Shown: piece after piece, positions 32,516 through 50,007 of the stretch
Numbering within the stretch: position 1 is the stretch's first letter
Layout of the letters: the number at the start of each line of letters is the position of its first letter
From: Comamonas testosteroni
GTDB taxonomy: Bacteria; Pseudomonadota; Gammaproteobacteria; Burkholderiales; Burkholderiaceae_C
Length of the DNA: 64,000 nt
Assembly: GCA_008727115.1 (NCBI GenBank)
Contig: CP044131.1
Coordinates: 1,240,001 to 1,304,000, forward strand
Direction: 5' to 3'
The notes under the pieces: generated by a model
Told to the model about the DNA's origin: nothing
Database searches by the model: none
The model's input: only the letters and a program-made list of their open reading frames with translations
Made by a program: the position numbers and the translations under genes

Positions 32516-33463
32516 TTACATGCGCCATGTTTTCCAGAGCATGGCGGGTAGGTCTGCCTTTCCTAGCTTGATGCGCTGATAGAGGTTGCGACCTTGCATG
32601 GCATCCAGTCTGTCCAGAATTCGCAGTCCCCCTTGAATGACCAGGCGCAGCTCCCAGCCTGCGCGCCCTGGTAGCTGGTGGACCAGTGGTGATCCTTGCG
32701 TCATCAGAGTACGGGCCTGGTGGTTGAGCTCTGCCAGCAAGGCCTGAAGTGCAGGGGTCAAGGCTTTGGCTTCGGGCTGGATCACAGATCGTTCAATTCC
32801 ATGGCGGGCCAAATCGGAGTCCGTCAGGTAATGGCGCTGACGTGGCAAGTCCTGGCTCAGGTCCTGCCAGAAGTTGATGAGCTGCAAGGCCGTGCAAACG
32901 GCATCGCTTTGCGTCAAGGCCCTGGGGGTGTCCACGCCATAAAGGTGCAGCAGCAAGCGGCCGATGGGGTTGGCCGAGTGGCGGCAATAGTCCAGCAACT
33001 GGGCCGTGTTGGTGTAGGGGGTTTGAGAGGCTGTCATGCGCACGTCTTGCTCAAAGGCACGAAGCAGGTCGGCCAAAAGTGGCTTGGGCAACTGGTGGGC
33101 TTGCACCTGAACGGCCAGCGGGCCGAAGACCTGAGGCCAGGCGGTACCCGCCAGCATGGCGGCCTCATCAGCAGTGTTGAGCTGGTGCAGATCTTTCGCA
33201 TACTGCTGCAGCAGTGACAGGCGTTGCTCGGTACTGAAGTCGCCTTCATCGGCCAGGTCATCTGCGGTGCGGGCAAAGTGATAAATGGCTGCGATGGGAG
33301 CGCGCAGGCGGGGAGGGCACAGCCAGGACGCGACGGGGAAATTCTCGTAATGCGTGATGCTGGCGGGTGCCTGCGGAGTGATGCTTGCGGAGGATTGTTG
33401 ATTCACGGGCCGTATTGTGAACCGGGAGTGGGCAAGACGGCGACTGCTGGCCGGATGCTGCAA
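32516..33463 (-). CDS. hpnC: Hydroxysqualene synthase HpnC
   Basis: Converts presqualene diphosphate to hydroxysqualene. Squalene/phytoene-synthase fold with FARTADDLADEGD (first Asp motif, about 62-74) and LINFWQDLSQDLPRQRHYL (second, about 190-208), the HpnC-type pattern. The ATG at 33463 adds a basic tail; a GTG at 33406 (19 residues shorter) is an alternative. First gene of hpnCDE. No squalene-hopene cyclase is in view. Confidence 0.9.
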   Translation of the reverse strand: MQHPASSRRLAHSRFTIRPVNQQSSASITPQAPASITHYENFPVASWLCPPRLRAPIAAIYHFARTADDLADEGDFSTEQRLSLLQQYAKDLHQLNTADEAAMLAGTAWPQVFGPLAVQVQAHQLPKPLLADLLRAFEQDVRMTASQTPYTNTAQLLDYCRHSANPIGRLLLHLYGVDTPRALTQSDAVCTALQLINFWQDLSQDLPRQRHYLTDSDLARHGIERSVIQPEAKALTPALQALLAELNHQARTLMTQGSPLVHQLPGRAGWELRLVIQGGLRILDRLDAMQGRNLYQRIKLGKADLPAMLWKTWRM

Positions 33464-40902: not shown

Positions 40903-43014
40903 TCAGTGGGCGTTTTGGAAGAAATGGGCTGCTTGCTGGAAGCGGTTGGCCATCGTTGGTGGCTGATACAGCACCGAATCGGGGCTGTTAGGACTGCTCC
41001 AGTCCTCTGGTTCGTGGTCTCCACGGCCAAAAAACTCTTTGGCCGTCTCGCCCGTGAGGCGGGCCGTACAGTTATTGAAACCAGTCCAAGGGGCCGCCAG
41101 CGGCGGCCTGGACACGGCCATGCCTCTGCCCTGCGCCTTATCGGCCCCTTGGGTCAATTCAGACTTCTCAGCATCCACATCAGCGGCCAATGTCGAGACG
41201 TAGGGTGTCCACGCAATGCGGCGGCTGACGAGCCAGCGGCCACGCATGCAGCCGCGCTGCGGGGTCAGGCCCACGATGCGGCCTTGTGCGATCTCTTCGC
41301 CGTATTGGTTGACGGCCCCCGCCTCGGGCGTGCGGTGCACCACGCGCAGATGCCACTCACTGCGCTTGCGGGCATGGCCACCCATGGCCTCCATAAAGCT
41401 GCACCAGTCGGCGCGTATCTCGCCATGGCGGTGGCAGGCCGTGTAGGCACGGCGGGTATCGCGGTCACCCTCACGGCCAAACAGCTCCAGCTGGTCTTTG
41501 CTTACGCGCCGCAGCTCGCGCCATACCGTCACACTGGGCATGCCAATGGTCTGAAACTGCCGAATGCCCCAATGGCTGGCCCATGCATCGACACGGCGGT
41601 AACCGGCAAAGCCATCCTTGTCTGACTCTTTGGCCTCGGGCTGCACCGGCTTGTCCAGGTCCAGTGCCATTTGCACCTCCTGGCCTTGCACCACATCGGT
41701 GTGCTCGGCCAGTGCGTGGTGACCTACGGACTTGGCGATGTACTTGGCCACATAGCCCGCCGCACCGCCGGCCACCATGCGCTTGATGCACACGCGGTTC
41801 TTCTGCGCACCCGGCTCCTCGCCCTCATCGGCCAACCAGTACTTGCGAATCAAGGCCTCCAGCGCCTGGGCCTGCTCCTCGTTCTCCACCCAGACCAGCG
41901 CATGCCAGTGGGGCGTGGCGTCATGGTGCGGCTCGGCCACGCGCAGGCCATACATGGCAATCTTCTTGCGCTTGGCAGCGCTGCGCAGCTTTTGCCAGTT
42001 CCCGCGCAGCCACATCTGGCCATCACGAGGGGTAATGCCGGGCTCATACTTTTCATTGGGTACAGGGCGGCCACCCCGGCCCAGCTTCACTGGGTGAAAG
42101 CGGCTGGGCAGTGTCAAGGTCAGGAACAGGCCCACATGGGCGCGGGCATCGGCATATTCCTCGGCACCACGCACCCGCGTCATCAGCTCACCACCGCGCA
42201 CCACGGGGTTGGATGTGCCCAGCGCCGCCAGCTCGGCCAGGTTGTAGATCTGCCCCGCCTCATTGGTATAGAGCGAGCGGGCCAGTGCCTCTGCATTGCG
42301 CTTGATCTGGTGCGTGCGGCGCATCAGCCCGGCATGGCTGATATAGCCACCACTGGCGCGGTGCACCATGCCCAGGCGGATATAGCCGCCCTCAACAATG
42401 CGAGCCACATGCGTACGCAGACGCCTGCGCCACCAGCGTGGGTCTTGGGCGCGTTTGACGGCGGGCAGCCCCTTGATAGGCTTGTCCTCCTCCACGCCAA
42501 TCATGCGCACCAGCATGCGAATGGCATCCACACGGCGGGCAATGCAGCGGGCGGCCTCGGCTTCCTTGTCTTCTTCGGTCTGGCGCGTACCCTTGGCCAA
42601 GCGCTGCAGCACCTCGGTGGCGCGCAGGCTGCTCTCTTCGGCCAGGCACACCGCCTCCAGCTCGCCCGCCTGCCCAGCCAGTGCATTGGCCCATTTGCAG
42701 ATGTCGTGATCGTCCAGGTTCCAGCGCATGGCATCGCCATAGGCATCTTGAAATGCCGCCAGCTCTTTCAGGCTTCTCCATGCCTTGGCCCAGTCCGGCG
42801 GCTGCTGGGTAAACCAGCGGGCCTGCTCATTGGCATCTGCGCCCATGGGGGGCACAGGCTCTATCTTGGTAAAGCGATTGCGAATGAATGCGCGCCACGC
42901 TTGCGGCGCATCGTCAATGATGCGTTCCAGATGCTCGGCCACATGCCGCAGCTGGGGCTTGTTCTTCCTCCAGTCTGCAAGGCCCTTGGGCAGTTCGCGC
43001 AGTATCTTGGCCAT
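40903..43014 (-). CDS. Phage replication endonuclease (P2 gpA type)
   Basis: HUH-superfamily nicking enzyme that starts rolling-circle replication. 703 aa, near P2 gpA (761). The HUH metal motif is in the TPHWHALVW segment (about residue 390), followed by the Tyr motif in GYVAKYIAKSVG (about 436), where nucleophile tyrosines sit in this family. The first 270 residues are helical and charged. Central gene of the leftward early operon. Its own sequence usually holds the nick site; I could not locate it. Confidence 0.88.
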   Translation of the reverse strand: MAKILRELPKGLADWRKNKPQLRHVAEHLERIIDDAPQAWRAFIRNRFTKIEPVPPMGADANEQARWFTQQPPDWAKAWRSLKELAAFQDAYGDAMRWNLDDHDICKWANALAGQAGELEAVCLAEESSLRATEVLQRLAKGTRQTEEDKEAEAARCIARRVDAIRMLVRMIGVEEDKPIKGLPAVKRAQDPRWWRRRLRTHVARIVEGGYIRLGMVHRASGGYISHAGLMRRTHQIKRNAEALARSLYTNEAGQIYNLAELAALGTSNPVVRGGELMTRVRGAEEYADARAHVGLFLTLTLPSRFHPVKLGRGGRPVPNEKYEPGITPRDGQMWLRGNWQKLRSAAKRKKIAMYGLRVAEPHHDATPHWHALVWVENEEQAQALEALIRKYWLADEGEEPGAQKNRVCIKRMVAGGAAGYVAKYIAKSVGHHALAEHTDVVQGQEVQMALDLDKPVQPEAKESDKDGFAGYRRVDAWASHWGIRQFQTIGMPSVTVWRELRRVSKDQLELFGREGDRDTRRAYTACHRHGEIRADWCSFMEAMGGHARKRSEWHLRVVHRTPEAGAVNQYGEEIAQGRIVGLTPQRGCMRGRWLVSRRIAWTPYVSTLAADVDAEKSELTQGADKAQGRGMAVSRPPLAAPWTGFNNCTARLTGETAKEFFGRGDHEPEDWSSPNSPDSVLYQPPTMANRFQQAAHFFQNAH

Positions 43015-44327: not shown

Positions 44328-44849
44328 CTAGCTGAGCGGTAGCGACTGGTCTAAGAACAGGTCGCCGGTCACCGGCTTGCTGTTCACAGAGCTATAGGGC
44401 ACCGATGGGGCTGAATCCATCTGGGCACGGATCACATCGCGGCGCATCTTGTCGGGCATGGGCAGAACGACCGATGGGTCGGGCGTGCCGCTGGGGGACA
44501 GGGTGTGGCGGATCTCCATGCTGGCCACGAAGGTGTGGCCGCATTCGACGTTGTTGCACTGGTAGTGATACTCGCGGGTGAGCTTGCTCATGCGGCGGCT
44601 AGACCGGATGGTGCAGGGCGCATCGCAGTGCGGGCACTCCAGGCGGTTGCGGGCCTTGGCGAAGTTTTTTGCGCGCTCCGCCTTGATCTTGTCCACCTTC
44701 GATTGCAGCAGCACGCGGTGATCGGCCTCGATGGCTTCGGCATCCACGCCCATGGTGATCTTGCGTGCAGGAGCACCCCGGCCTTCTTGCGAAAGATCGC
44801 TATGTGCCTGCAGGGCCGCCTTGTGGTCAAACGGGTTGTTTTCAGCCAT
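44328..44849 (-). CDS. ogr: Ogr/Delta-type zinc-finger late-gene activator
   Basis: P2 Ogr and P4 Delta activate late promoters. The Zn ligands are Cys72-x2-Cys75 and Cys98-x4-Cys103, with ECPHCDAPCTIRSSRRMS and the family's EYHYQCNN...CGHTF between and MEIRHTLSPSG after. 173 aa is longer than P2 Ogr (72) because of a helical N-terminal extension (1-70) and a C-terminal tail. It sits in the early operon rather than beside D as in P2. Expected to act at the late tail promoters. Confidence 0.85.
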   Translation of the reverse strand: MAENNPFDHKAALQAHSDLSQEGRGAPARKITMGVDAEAIEADHRVLLQSKVDKIKAERAKNFAKARNRLECPHCDAPCTIRSSRRMSKLTREYHYQCNNVECGHTFVASMEIRHTLSPSGTPDPSVVLPMPDKMRRDVIRAQMDSAPSVPYSSVNSKPVTGDLFLDQSLPLS

Positions 44850-44861
44850 GACAGCACCTTG

Positions 44862-45173
44862 TTATTGAGCGCAGTGGGCGCGTTCAGCGGGCCCGCATTC
44901 GCCGCCGCCAGAGCGGGCGCAGTGGCAATACGCACCCACACGACTCAGCACGCCAATGGCGTCCATATATTCACGGCTGACCAGCACATAGCCCGCCGCG
45001 CCCACAATGGCGTCCAGCTTGGCCACCGGCACACCCTGCTGGCCGCTGAGTACCCGGCTGACATTGCTGGCATCCCAGCCCGCAGCCTCCTGCACAGCGC
45101 TGCCGGGCTGGCTCAGGTTGTGGCGCAGCACACGTTCAATCGTGCCGGCTGAAAGCGGTGAGCGCATGTTCAT
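44862..45173 (-). CDS. CII-like transcriptional regulator
   Basis: 103 aa. Residues 12-70 (TIERVLRHNLSQPGSAVQEA, then AGWDASNVSRVLSGQQGVP) follow the lambda CII pattern of a helix, HTH and a Val-rich helix. The C terminus is Cys-rich and unlike CII. AGGAG lies 5-6 nt before the ATG. Directly upstream is a regular TTGC/GCAA array with 6-nt spacing (45202-45235), the CII recognition format, so it may control its own operon. In this role it would promote lysogeny or early transcription. Confidence 0.65.
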   Translation of the reverse strand: MNMRSPLSAGTIERVLRHNLSQPGSAVQEAAGWDASNVSRVLSGQQGVPVAKLDAIVGAAGYVLVSREYMDAIGVLSRVGAYCHCARSGGGECGPAERAHCAQ

Positions 45174-45201: not shown

Positions 45202-45247
45202 GCAACGCCACGCAAAACAAGTTGCGTGTGATTGCGTGAGGTATTGC
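45202..45247. promoter_or_regulatory. Symmetric TTGC-N6-TTGC array upstream of the CII-like gene
   Basis: GCAA (45202), GCAA (45212), TTGC (45222), TTGC (45232), each separated by 6 nt, giving a TTGC-N6-TTGC site on each strand, back to back. A further TTGC at 45244 is 8 nt on. Lambda CII binds TTGC-N6-TTGC. It lies 29 nt upstream of the gene's ATG. Confidence 0.6.
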
Positions 45248-45270
45248 GCAAGATGCAATGCATGAACTTC

Positions 45271-45534
45271 TCAGCCCCGTGCATTGACAGCCGCCGAAGC
45301 AGCGCCGCCCTTGTGGGCCGCGATGATGGCTTGCTCGGACTCAAGGTCTGCCAGACCCCGCGTGATCAGCTCGCGGATCACACCGGCAATGCTGCTGCTG
45401 CCGCCGCGCGCGGCCACGATCTCGCGCACCTTGCGGTGGTTCTCGGCGCCTTGTTTGCCAAAGCGGAAATAGACCAGGTCGTCCGGCTTGGAGCTGGCCT
45501 GCCGGTCAACGGGCTGGGCTTGATGGGAGCGCAT
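45271..45534 (-). CDS. Small early protein divergent from the repressor (87 aa)
   Basis: MRSHQAQPVDRQASSKPDDL, a strand-rich middle (VYFRFGKQG), then helices with RGGSSSIAGVIRELITRGLADLE, a pattern compatible with a ribbon-helix-helix DNA-binding fold. Its place, first leftward gene opposite the S24 repressor, is that of a Cro/Cox-type antirepressor. The ATG has no strong ribosome site. Function inferred from position. Confidence 0.5.
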   Translation of the reverse strand: MRSHQAQPVDRQASSKPDDLVYFRFGKQGAENHRKVREIVAARGGSSSIAGVIRELITRGLADLESEQAIIAAHKGGAASAAVNARG

Positions 45535-45692: not shown

Positions 45693-46397
45693 ATGGAAAA
45701 AGATAACTTTCCATCGAGGCTACGTGAGGAGCGTGAGCGTCTTGGCCTAAACCAAGAGGCGCTTGCAGAAGCCGGCGGAGTAAAAAAGCTCGCTCAGCAC
45801 AAGTACGAAAAGGGAGAGAACAGCCCTACGGTTGCTTATCTCCAGGCAGTTGCTGCTGCTGGCGTTGACGTGGTCTATGCACTGACTGGCGTACGTGAAT
45901 CTGTTGCCGCTCCAGCAGTGGCTGGCAAGCACGCACTATCTGGTTCTGCACCAGCCCCAGCCAGCAATGAAGACACGATCTATGTGCCACTGCTTAGCGC
46001 CACCGGCAGCATGGGGCCGGGCAATGAGCTGCTGAGCGAAGACGTCATCCTCAACGACGTACCGTTTTCACGCCGCTGGCTGGCCACGCACCTGCCGCGC
46101 TGCAGGCCTGCGGCCATCAAGCTGATTCACGCCTATGGCGACAGCATGCACGGCACGCTGGAAAGCGGTGACTTCTGTCTGGTCGATACCGATGTGATTG
46201 AAGTGCTGGTGGACGGCGTGTATGTGCTCGAAGCGCACAGCCGTCTCTTTATCAAGCGCGTGCGCCAGCGGCTCGATGGCCGCTATGAGGTCAGCAGCGA
46301 TAACGAGGCCATCAAGACCTCCGACATCCTCGACGGCTCCGAGCAAATCTGCATCAAGGGCCGCGTGGTGTATGGGTGGAATGGACGGCGGTTTTAA
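45693..46397 (+). CDS. LexA-like (S24) phage repressor
   Basis: 234 aa. HTH-XRE domain in residues 5-62 (RLREERERLGLNQEALAEAGGV). The linker contains an Ala77-Gly78 pair suitable for self-cleavage, and the S24 peptidase domain has Ser151 (YGDSMHGTLESGD) and Lys188 (LFIKRVRQ). Known in the family: RecA-stimulated cleavage inactivates the repressor. P2 itself uses a different, non-cleavable C repressor, so this lysogeny control is lambdoid. Divergent from the early operon. Confidence 0.88.
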   Translation: MEKDNFPSRLREERERLGLNQEALAEAGGVKKLAQHKYEKGENSPTVAYLQAVAAAGVDVVYALTGVRESVAAPAVAGKHALSGSAPAPASNEDTIYVPLLSATGSMGPGNELLSEDVILNDVPFSRRWLATHLPRCRPAAIKLIHAYGDSMHGTLESGDFCLVDTDVIEVLVDGVYVLEAHSRLFIKRVRQRLDGRYEVSSDNEAIKTSDILDGSEQICIKGRVVYGWNGRRF

Positions 46398-47314: not shown

Positions 47315-47371
47315 GGCTTAGATAAGCACTGAATGTATTTTTCAACTCAGACCACGTCTAGAGAGGGACAT

Positions 47372-47542
47372 ATGGTTGATATTCGTAGAACTCCACCCCC
47401 ACCGCCACCGCCACCGCCACCGCCACCACCACCACCACCACCACCACCACCACCACCCCATGTGAACAACGATGGCGGGCGAATCGAACGGAAGCACGAT
47501 GTTCAGCGCAACATCGCTCCGCCTCCACCACCTAGGCGTTGA
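47372..47542 (+). CDS. 56-aa polyproline peptide
   Basis: ATG 47372 (GAGAGGGA 6 nt upstream) opens MVDIRRT, then 22 consecutive Pro codons (47393-47458: mostly CCG/CCA alternation then CCA repeats), then HVNNDGGRIERKHDVQRNI, ending in a second short Pro run and RR. Such a tract would stall ribosomes without EF-P. The CCR tract is a microsatellite likely to vary in length. Function unknown; coding is supported by the ribosome site and in-frame tract. Confidence 0.5.
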   Translation: MVDIRRTPPPPPPPPPPPPPPPPPPPPPPHVNNDGGRIERKHDVQRNIAPPPPPRR

Positions 47543-48272: not shown

Positions 48273-49562
48273 CTAGGAGGCAGGCGGCATGCTCTGCACG
48301 CTGGCAATGTAATTCGGCGTCTTGCGCTGCTGCCGCATGCCCCAGCCTGCTGACTGCCGGGCACTGGCCACACCCACAGTGCCTTTACCCCAGCGGGCAT
48401 TGATGTGGTCCATGGTTTCCATGAGTGCACTGCGATCGCGCACGGGGGGCGGGGCATCGTCTAGCAAAGACGCTTGCTCCTGCGTGCGGGGCGAGAGGTC
48501 CATCAGAATCACACCGGCCTTGGCCAGACGGTAGCCTGGTTCATAAAAGTCTTTGATGCCGCGCATGGCTGCGTCCACCAGCACGGCGGTGTCTGCGCTG
48601 GGCGGGTGCAGCTGTATGGTGGCGCTGCCGCTGAAGGGTTCGTCACGTTCACGGAATGGGCTGGTGCGGGCAAACACATGCAGCATGCCGGCGCGGTGCT
48701 GCTGGCCGCGCAGCTTTTCGGCGGCGCGTTGGGCGAAGTGGCTGACGGCCTCCAGCAGCGGCTCTATCTCTTTGACGGGCTGGCCGAATGAGCGGGTGCA
48801 GGCGATCTGCTGCTTGGGCGGTGCCTGCAGCTCAAGGCTGATGCAGGGCGTGCCCTGCAGTTCACGCACGGTGCGCTCCAGCACCACGCCAAAGTGGGTG
48901 CGCACGGTGGCAATGGGCATATTGCGCAGCTGCCAGGCGGTGTGCACATCCAGCCCTGCCAGCCGTTTGGTGAGCTGGCGGCCCACACCCCAGATCTCAC
49001 CTACGGGCGTGCACTCCAGCACCTGCCGAAGCTCGGGCTGCGTCAGCTCGGCAAAGTTGCACACGCGCTGCAGGTGGGCGGGGTAGCTGCCGGGTTTGCG
49101 TTCAGAGTCCTTGGCGACATGGTTGGCCAGCTTGGCCAGGGTCTTGGTGGGGGCGATGCCGATGCAGGTGGGGATGCCAATGCCGCGCAGGATGCGGTCA
49201 CGAATGACCCAGGCGCGGCGGGTGACTTCGGGCACGCCTTGCAGGTCGATAAAGCACTCGTCGATGCTGTACTCCTCCAGCTGCGGGCCCAGGGCCGAGG
49301 CAAGGCTCATCATGCGCTCGCTCATGTCGCCATACAGAGGGAAGTTGGCGCTCAGGGCGACCAGCCCGGCTTCATCGTGCAGATGTTTGATCTGGAAGTA
49401 GGGCGTGCCCATCTTGATGCCCAGCGCCTTGGCTTCATCGCTGCGGGCCACGGCACAGCCGTCATTGTTGGAGAGAACGACCACGGGCACGCGCTTGAGG
49501 CTGGGCCTGAAAACGCGCTCGCAGCTTACGTAGAAGTTATTGCCGTCGAGCAGGGCATACAT
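48273..49562 (-). CDS. umuC: Error-prone DNA polymerase V subunit UmuC
   Basis: Y-family translesion polymerase catalytic subunit. MYALLDGNNFYVSCERVF starts with the catalytic Asp motif, and YSIDECFIDL has the second acidic pair; the little-finger domain follows (from about 230) with TRSFGQPV and the C-terminal beta-clamp region. 429 aa, near E. coli UmuC (422). ATG 49562 lies 4 nt after the umuD stop. The open frame upstream of it is antisense umuD sequence. Works with processed UmuD. Confidence 0.95.
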   Translation of the reverse strand: MYALLDGNNFYVSCERVFRPSLKRVPVVVLSNNDGCAVARSDEAKALGIKMGTPYFQIKHLHDEAGLVALSANFPLYGDMSERMMSLASALGPQLEEYSIDECFIDLQGVPEVTRRAWVIRDRILRGIGIPTCIGIAPTKTLAKLANHVAKDSERKPGSYPAHLQRVCNFAELTQPELRQVLECTPVGEIWGVGRQLTKRLAGLDVHTAWQLRNMPIATVRTHFGVVLERTVRELQGTPCISLELQAPPKQQIACTRSFGQPVKEIEPLLEAVSHFAQRAAEKLRGQQHRAGMLHVFARTSPFRERDEPFSGSATIQLHPPSADTAVLVDAAMRGIKDFYEPGYRLAKAGVILMDLSPRTQEQASLLDDAPPPVRDRSALMETMDHINARWGKGTVGVASARQSAGWGMRQQRKTPNYIASVQSMPPAS

Positions 49563-49566
49563 GGCG

Positions 49567-50007
49567 TCACCATTTGCGAAAGCGCCGCACGCTGGAGGTG
49601 ACCACGCCCCACAGCTCGATGGTCTGGCCTTCACGCGGGCGAATGTCGGGGTAGGTGGGGTTTTCAGGGCGCAGCATGAAGACGCCGTTGCGCTGGTAGA
49701 GGCGCTTGCAAGTGAACTCGCCATCCACCTCGGCAATGACGATGTCGTCATGCACGGCGCGCAGCACCTTGTCCACCACCAGCCAGTCGCCGTCATAGAG
49801 GCCTGCGCCAATCATGCTGTCGCCGCGCAGCGGCATGACAAAGGTGGTGGCCGGGTGCTGGATCAGGCTCTTGGCCAAGTCAAAACGAGTGGTGCCAAAG
49901 TCTTCAGCTGGACTGGGAAATCCTGCACGCACGCAGCCCACAACCATGGGCAGCTCCAAGGGTGTGCTGGCCACGGGCACAGGAATGCATGTGTTGATAC
50001 TGTTCAT
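49567..50007 (-). CDS. umuD: UmuD, LexA-fold SOS protein
   Basis: Self-cleaving S24 protein that on RecA contact loses its N terminus to give UmuD', the Pol V accessory. Cleavage pair Ala28-Gly29 in CVRAGFPSPAED, active Ser64 in RGDSMIGAGLYDGD and Lys101 in FTCKRL. 146 aa. A LexA box overlaps its start codon. Paired with umuC within the prophage. Confidence 0.93.
   Translation of the reverse strand: MNSINTCIPVPVASTPLELPMVVGCVRAGFPSPAEDFGTTRFDLAKSLIQHPATTFVMPLRGDSMIGAGLYDGDWLVVDKVLRAVHDDIVIAEVDGEFTCKRLYQRNGVFMLRPENPTYPDIRPREGQTIELWGVVTSSVRRFRKW

What the first reader, a model, noticed from the sequence alone, without database searches (positions are those of the whole stretch)
45202..45247. 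Regular TTGC/GCAA array at the CII-like gene
GCAA-N6-GCAA-N6-TTGC-N6-TTGC is exactly symmetric, giving back-to-back TTGC-N6-TTGC sites, the lambda CII recognition form, 29 nt before the CII-like gene. P2 phages do not use CII, so this looks like a lambdoid control circuit in a P2-type phage, perhaps autoregulated.
Basis: partly seen in the sequence, partly recalled or inferred. Interest (0 to 1): 0.6.

Follow-up and report, generated by a model that had tools for sequence, protein, structure and literature searches.

The report
Phage lysogeny switch with doubled operator
A short, perfectly regular four-part DNA pattern in a dormant virus is almost certainly the landing site where a small viral protein switches on the gene that keeps the virus dormant; the same pattern, always at the same distance from its promoter, recurs in dozens of related viruses but is doubled compared with the textbook lambda version.

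Summary
The array is real: GCAA-N6-GCAA-N6-TTGC-N6-TTGC at 45202-45235 is the only exact copy in the 4.14-Mb host genome. It is an operator, not chance. In 25 diverged phage loci carrying the CII-like gene, the four half-sites recur at the same 10-bp steps, and exactly 13 nt beyond the last one lies a -10 hexamer NANNNT in 25/25. This is the spacing of lambda pRE. The promoter faces the repressor gene; the CII-like gene's side has no -10. A DNA-only scan of 2.9 million viral contigs found 67 matches, 56 beside a CII-like gene; moving the -10 by 2 nt left 6, none beside one. The CII-like protein is a distant relative of lambda-type CII, not of 186 CII. Best reading: a pRE/pE-type establishment promoter, activated by the CII-like protein. 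Wrong: that P2 phages do not use CII (186 does), and that the site drives the CII-like gene. New relative to lambda is the conserved second, inverted pair. Binding is inferred, not shown.

The parts
45202..45205 (-). half-site 1 (GCAA; TTGCG on the - strand), outer half of the second, inverted pair, about -58 relative to the predicted start
   Evidence: conserved as NCAN: CA in 16/16 representatives when the alignment is anchored only on the other pair and the -10
45212..45215 (-). half-site 2 (GCAA), inner half of the inverted pair, about -48
   Evidence: CAA in 16/16 representatives under the same anchoring, at most 6/16 at any other nearby offset apart from half-site 1
45222..45225 (+). half-site 3 (TTGC, extended TTGCGTG), about -38
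   Evidence: same place as the upstream TTGC of lambda pRE
45226..45231 (+). N6 between half-sites 3 and 4, the position of a -35 hexamer 17 bp from the -10 (GTGTGA, a poor -35, as expected for an activated promoter)
   Evidence: sequence; the GTG is nearly invariant; role inferred from lambda pRE
45232..45235 (+). half-site 4 (TTGC, extended TTGCGTG), about -28
45249..45254 (+). -10 hexamer CAAGAT, exactly 13 nt after half-site 4; predicted transcription start near 45261
   Evidence: NANNNT at spacer 13 in 25/25 representatives chosen without using it, at most 7/25 at any other spacer; start site inferred
44862..45173 (-). CII-like gene (103 aa; HTH followed by a long C-terminal helix and a conserved Cys cluster), presumed ligand of the array
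   Evidence: phrog_20051 4e-26, phrog_725 CII-like 0.043; family-level matches to lambda CII PHROGs; hhalign to lambda CII family; model pLDDT 82
45271..45534 (-). 87-aa ORF in the position of 186 apl / lambda cro; the predicted transcript runs antisense to it
   Evidence: ORF list; no family match; in Burkholderia relatives this position holds an Arc-like repressor
45693..46397 (+). phage repressor (HTH_3 plus Peptidase_S24), target of the predicted promoter
   Evidence: Pfam and PHROG matches
44328..44849 (-). Ogr/Delta-type late activator, next gene after the CII-like gene
   Evidence: PF04606 2.9e-18
40903..43014 (-). P2 gpA-type replication protein, shows that the phage is P2-type
   Evidence: PF05840 8.8e-57

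Best explanation
The array is the operator of an establishment-of-lysogeny promoter of the pRE/pE kind. After infection the early operon (87-aa gene, CII-like gene, Ogr gene) is transcribed leftward. The CII-like protein binds the four TTGMG half-sites, which lie at 10-bp steps on one face of the helix at about -28, -38, -48 and -58. It helps RNA polymerase start at the -10 hexamer 45249-45254. The transcript runs rightward, antisense to the 87-aa gene, into the repressor gene at 45693, and so commits the phage to lysogeny. The proximal pair (-28/-38) uses the lambda CII direct-repeat geometry around the -35 region. The second, inverted pair (-48/-58) is a conserved addition that lambda lacks and most likely holds a second CII-like multimer for cooperative binding or extra RNA polymerase contact. 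Shown here: the array, its conservation, the fixed -10 position, its one-sidedness, the constant CII-like neighbour and the protein's distant relation to lambda CII. Inferred: that this protein binds it, activation, and the role of the second pair.
For: Array exact and unique in the genome. Among 59 distinct upstream regions of CII-like homologues, spacing 6-6-6 is the best of 343 spacing combinations (mean score 12.1 of 14; next 10.5; all combinations 8.6 +/- 0.5) and 48 of 59 score 11 or more. In 25 representatives under 80% identical, NANNNT occurs at exactly 13 nt in 25/25 (YANNNT 22/25), against at most 7/25 at other spacers and 1/25 on the mirror side. Anchoring only on the proximal pair and the -10, CAA is found at half-site 2 in 16/16 and CA at half-site 1 in 16/16. 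A DNA-only scan of viral contigs gave 67 stretches, 56 with a CII-like gene on the predicted side, including subfamilies the protein search had missed. The pattern with the -10 shifted by 2 nt gave 6 stretches, none with a CII-like gene. Lambda pRE has TTGC-N6-TTGC-13 nt-AAGTAT, and P22, phi21, Edno5 and S9-5 also have 13 nt. The repressor-type ORF lies downstream on the promoter strand in the window and relatives. The CII-like gene is the only constant neighbour: the apl-position gene and repressor differ between loci. The gene order matches 186 cI / apl / pE / cII. The protein profile matches the lambda CII family (hhalign probability 92.5, E 4.9e-7, 55 columns).
Against: No binding or transcription data exist. 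The AlphaFold model matched only generic XRE folds (E 0.18 or worse), and Pfam Phage_CII is not reached at its cut-off. Some homologues have a weak or absent array (L036 and L064, scores 8-9.5; L021 and L023 degraded). Half-site 1 is less strictly kept than the others (CAA in 10/16). In Burkholderia-type phages the outermost TTGA includes the stop codon of the upstream gene, so part of that conservation has another cause. Several loci are related by descent, so counts overstate independence.
Confidence: 0.87

Rival explanations
1. The four half-sites bind the CII-like protein mainly to repress: the array sits in the early transcript just before the CII-like gene and works as a roadblock or operator for autorepression, and the -10 is secondary.
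For: The array lies 28 nt from the start codon in the window and within about 3-44 nt of it in all 56 DNA-found loci. The inverted pair points toward the CII-like gene.
Against: The -10 at exactly 13 nt is as invariant as the half-sites and exists only on the repressor side. For the analogous 186 pE, DNA-bound CII was not a roadblock to pR polymerases (PMC6593788).
Confidence: 0.07
2. The array is the operator of another regulator, the repressor or the small protein in the apl position, not of the CII-like protein.
For: The inner GCAA-N6-TTGC is a palindrome of the sort that XRE repressors bind, and both proteins are encoded nearby (sequence).
Against: The repressors differ widely between loci (S24 type, short 150-190-aa HTH types) and the apl-position gene changes class (Arc-like, Cro-like, unknown), while the CII-like gene is present at 56 of 67 DNA-found sites.
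Confidence: 0.04
3. The inverted repeats form an RNA hairpin in the leader of the CII-like gene (translation or termination control).
For: In the window the leader can fold into a 6+7-bp hairpin (-18.5 to -21.8 kcal/mol).
Against: Pairing between the two spacers that would complete the stem is at or below the shuffled expectation across 16 and 29 representatives, and folds differ from locus to locus. There is no T-run, and the -10 conservation is unexplained.
Confidence: 0.02

Closest known systems
Phage lambda CII and promoter pRE (also P22 C1, phi21, D3)
   Same: Direct TTGC-N6-TTGC pair around the -35 region, 13 nt to the -10, antisense transcript into the repressor gene, activator gene next to the site; distant protein relation.
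   Different: Lambda-family sites lack the second, inverted pair (none of lambda, P22, phi21, D3, Edno5, S9-5 has CAA at the half-site 2 position; read) and lie inside the 5' end of cII. Here the array lies before the gene. The family has a C-terminal CxC...C motif not seen in lambda CII.
Coliphage 186 CII and promoter pE
   Same: P2-type phage; gene order repressor, apl-position gene, establishment promoter, cII; half-sites at about -38 and -58 in inverted orientation two turns apart (PMC6593788), positions also present in this array.
   Different: 186 CII (169 aa, phrog_101) shows no relation to this family; half-site ATGTTTG, not TTGMG; only two half-sites; the 186 site is inside the cII gene.
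phrog_20051 'DNA binding protein' (Burkholderia phages KS5 gp9, AP3)
   Same: Same protein family as the window's CII-like gene; the same array and -10 precede the KS5 and AP3 genes.
   Different: Annotated only as a DNA-binding protein. No operator or lysogeny role for it was found in the KS5 paper by the terms searched (PMC3091744).
YdaT of prophage CP-933P
   Same: CII-equivalent position, HTH plus long helix forming a tetramer (PMC9986795).
   Different: Binds a TTGATT-N6-AATCAA inverted repeat, not 10-bp-stepped TTGMG half-sites.

Membership tests
Lambda-type CII-activated promoter (pRE class) | two direct TTGC half-sites 10 bp apart | tested here: met
   45222-45235; conserved
Lambda-type CII-activated promoter (pRE class) | -10 hexamer 13 nt after the second half-site | tested here: met
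   CAAGAT 45249-45254; NANNNT 25/25 in representatives; lambda pRE measured the same way
Lambda-type CII-activated promoter (pRE class) | promoter oriented antisense to the early genes and toward the repressor gene | tested here: met
   orientation and gene order by sequence; transcript itself not observed
Lambda-type CII-activated promoter (pRE class) | binding and activation by the CII protein | not testable with these tools
   needs footprinting or a reporter
Lambda CII protein family (Pfam Phage_CII PF05269) | match to the family profile at its curated cut-off | tested here: not met
   only 1 of 38 members at E 0.059; the window protein has no match
Lambda CII protein family (wider, PHROG 191/725) | detectable profile similarity to lambda-type CII | tested here: met
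   28/38 members match phrog_725 and 14/38 match phrog_191 at E<=0.1, best 1.6e-5 and 1.2e-4; window protein phrog_725 0.043; hhalign 92.5%
Lambda CII protein family (wider, PHROG 191/725) | CII fold and tetramer | tested here: inconclusive
   model has HTH plus a 24-residue helix; fold search gave only weak generic XRE matches; oligomer not tested
186-type CII/pE system | 186-type CII protein | tested here: not met
   186 CII is phrog_101; no member of this family matches it
186-type CII/pE system | ATGTTTG inverted repeat two turns apart | tested here: not met
   half-site here is TTGMG; 186 sequence read
P2-type (Peduoviridae-like) phage | gpA replication protein, Ogr/Delta activator, gpD tail gene | tested here: met
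   PF05840, PF04606, PF05954

The most novel reading that the evidence does not exclude
The CII-like protein assembles on a symmetric operator of four half-sites as two back-to-back tetramers or one larger complex, combining the lambda direct-repeat geometry (-28/-38) with the 186-like inverted spacing (-38/-58). This would be an activator architecture not described for any CII, with a strictly one-sided promoter, carried as a module by both P2-type and lambda-type phages.
Probability: 0.4. Interest if true: 0.65.

Novelty: new variant of a known kind. Interest (0 to 1): 0.55.

Why it matters
It gives a function, a target site and a promoter to a phage protein family annotated only as 'DNA binding protein' (phrog_20051), and predicts the lysogeny decision circuit of many prophages in Comamonas, Burkholderia and relatives. 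It shows that a lambda-type CII circuit is at home in P2-type phages, where the known case (186) uses an unrelated CII. The doubled operator is a clean natural test of how CII-type activators use spacing and symmetry. The DNA pattern alone is specific enough to find such circuits in raw sequence.

Tried and rejected
Searching 401 genomes of the host family with the single protein or with the first alignment found almost nothing; viral contigs were the useful source. Two bidirectional CII promoters: rejected, no -10 on the CII-gene side. RNA hairpin: rejected on covariation. A wider regulon (lambda pI- or paQ-like extra sites): the pair-plus-minus-10 pattern occurs once in the 64-kb window and once in the whole KS5 genome, so no second target was found. 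The first attempt at that pattern had the spacer one base too long and hit a chance site at 33385 (corrected). Fold search: no match to the CII fold listed; only generic XRE domains, which does not exclude it. Literature searches found no report of this array, but the library is open-access only.

Full report
What is there. It is the only perfect copy in the window (0.09 expected even when two mismatches are allowed) and in the 4.14-Mb host genome. Single TTGC-N6-TTGC pairs are at chance level in the window (8 found, 7.0 expected), so the pairwise motif alone means little; the fourfold symmetric arrangement is what stands out. It lies 28 nt before the start codon of a 103-aa HTH gene (44862-45173, - strand), after an 87-aa ORF (45271-45534, - strand), and opposite a Peptidase_S24-type repressor (45693-46397, + strand). 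The next gene downstream is an Ogr/Delta activator, and P2-type gpA and gpD genes lie further out. The phage is therefore P2-type.

Is it conserved, and how? Homologues of the CII-like protein were collected from viral contigs and annotated phages. Across 59 distinct upstream regions, all 343 combinations of three spacers from 3 to 9 nt were scored. The combination 6-6-6 came first (mean 12.1 of 14; next best 10.5; average over combinations 8.6, sd 0.5), and 48 of 59 regions scored 11 or more. In Comamonas-type loci the half-sites are GCAA/TTGC in an intergenic gap. In Burkholderia-type loci (KS5, AP3 and many contigs; protein about 50% identical) they are TCAA/GCAA...TTGC/TTGA, overlap the end of the upstream gene, and lie a few bases from the start codon. 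The half-site consensus over 25 representatives (under 80% identical over 100 nt) is TTGMG, with GTG after half-site 3 nearly invariant.

A promoter on one side only. The 25 representatives were aligned on the array alone. In all 25 a hexamer NANNNT (YANNNT in 22) begins exactly 13 nt beyond half-site 4, on the strand that faces the repressor. No other spacer gives more than 7 of 25, and the mirror position on the CII-gene side gives 1 of 25. In the window this hexamer is CAAGAT, 45249-45254; in Burkholderia loci it is mostly TAACTT. Lambda pRE, read from the lambda record with the same script, is TTGC-GTTTGT-TTGC, 13 nt, AAGTAT, and P22, phi21, Edno5 and S9-5 also show 13 nt. The agreement is exact.

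Reciprocal tests. (a) Anchoring only on half-sites 3 and 4 and the -10, without using the inverted pair, 16 representatives remain. CAA is at half-site 2 in 16/16, and CA is at half-site 1 in 16/16 (CAA in 10/16); CAA at any other nearby offset is found in at most 6. The inverted pair is therefore conserved in its own right. (b) A DNA-only scan of 2.9 million viral contigs for array + GTG + -10 returned 67 stretches. In 56 of them a member of the CII-like family lies on the predicted side, including subfamilies the protein search had not reported; the other 11 have no such gene and look like chance matches. Moving the -10 by two bases gave 6 stretches, none with a CII-like gene. (c) The array-plus-(-10) pattern has one match in the whole host genome and the pair-plus-(-10) pattern one in the whole KS5 genome.

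Who binds it? The CII-like gene is the only neighbour that stays constant. The gene in the apl position is Arc-like in some loci (AP3, L093), a different DNA-binding protein or unassigned in others, and the repressors fall into different types. 39 of 56 DNA-found loci have an Ogr-like zinc motif downstream, while others look like lambda-type phages: NinB in L139 and an O-like replication protein in L098. Bordetella IFTN phages (NinB, DnaB), whose homologue is 33% identical, show a degenerate TCAN/TTKA array and CAAACT at the same 13-nt position (read). The protein is a distant lambda-type CII: 28 of 38 family members match phrog_725 and 14 match phrog_191; lambda CII itself belongs to phrog_191 and 186 CII to phrog_101, which no member matches. 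Profile-profile comparison with nine lambda-family CII proteins gave probability 92.5 and E 4.9e-7 over 55 columns. Lambda CII (1zs4) was one of only two PDB sequences listed, at an insignificant E of 0.8. The recognition-helix region reads DxSQ/NxSR in both families. Pfam's Phage_CII cut-off is not met, and the AlphaFold model (pLDDT 82; HTH plus a 24-residue helix at 67-90) found only weak generic XRE matches. The fold comparison is inconclusive.

How it most likely works. The layout is that of the 186 and lambda establishment circuits: repressor, apl/cro-position gene, establishment promoter, cII, with the promoter running antisense over the apl/cro-position gene into the repressor. With the -10 fixed, the half-sites are centred at about -28, -38, -48 and -58. 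The first two are the lambda CII positions. 186 CII binds an inverted repeat at -38 and -58, two turns apart, and contacts the alpha and sigma subunits (PMC6593788). The array thus contains both geometries. Lambda-family sites have no second pair (none of six has CAA at the half-site 2 position; read). The proposal is that the CII-like protein activates rightward transcription from about 45261 into the repressor, and that the inverted pair adds a second multimer or a second polymerase contact. Binding, activation and the role of the second pair are inferred. Lambda CII binds its direct repeat as a tetramer with two of its four subunits (PMC9986795, citing the structures), which is why two tetramers are the first guess for four half-sites.

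Rivals. Autorepression of the early operon fits the position but not the one-sided -10. An operator for the repressor or the apl-position protein does not fit the changing identity of those genes. An RNA hairpin is possible in the window sequence, but pairing between the spacers is not above the shuffled expectation in relatives.

Limits. Counts come from related sequences and overstate independence. In Burkholderia loci the last TTGA includes a stop codon. A few homologues have a degraded or missing array (L036, L064, L021, L023). Host names of the viral contigs were not available. The literature search covers only open-access papers.

Verdict. Observation confirmed; interpretation partly supported. 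A lambda-type CII circuit does sit in this P2-type phage, but P2-type phages were already known to use a CII (186), and the site drives the repressor, not the CII-like gene. The conserved doubled operator makes it a new variant of a known kind.

Noticed in passing
44862-45173 (residues about 83-93 of the CII-like protein) and all homologues: A C-terminal cysteine motif (CxCAR...GxGEC; C83 invariant and C93 nearly so in 38 sequences, CC...C in the Bordetella group) is conserved and not seen in lambda CII; a metal site or redox switch on the activator is possible.
   Followed up: partly
L085, L098, L139 and L012: The CII-like gene and array also occur in phages that look lambda-type (NinB, O-like replication genes), so the module seems to move between phage types.
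   Followed up: partly
48273-50007: ORFs resembling a UmuD/UmuC (error-prone polymerase) pair lie between the repressor block and tail gene D, a possible lysogenic-conversion cargo; judged by eye from the translations only.
   Followed up: no
47333-47542: A short ORF with an uninterrupted run of about 20 prolines followed by another proline tract.
   Followed up: no
45271-45534: The 87-aa ORF in the apl position has no family match, although Burkholderia relatives have an Arc-like repressor there; it may be a diverged or replaced early repressor.
   Followed up: partly
45244-45258: Extra TTGC/GCAA words (TTGCGCAAGATGCAAT) around the -10; GCAAGATGCA is shared by several Comamonas-type relatives but not by Burkholderia-type ones, so it is probably promoter context and not a further half-site.
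   Followed up: partly
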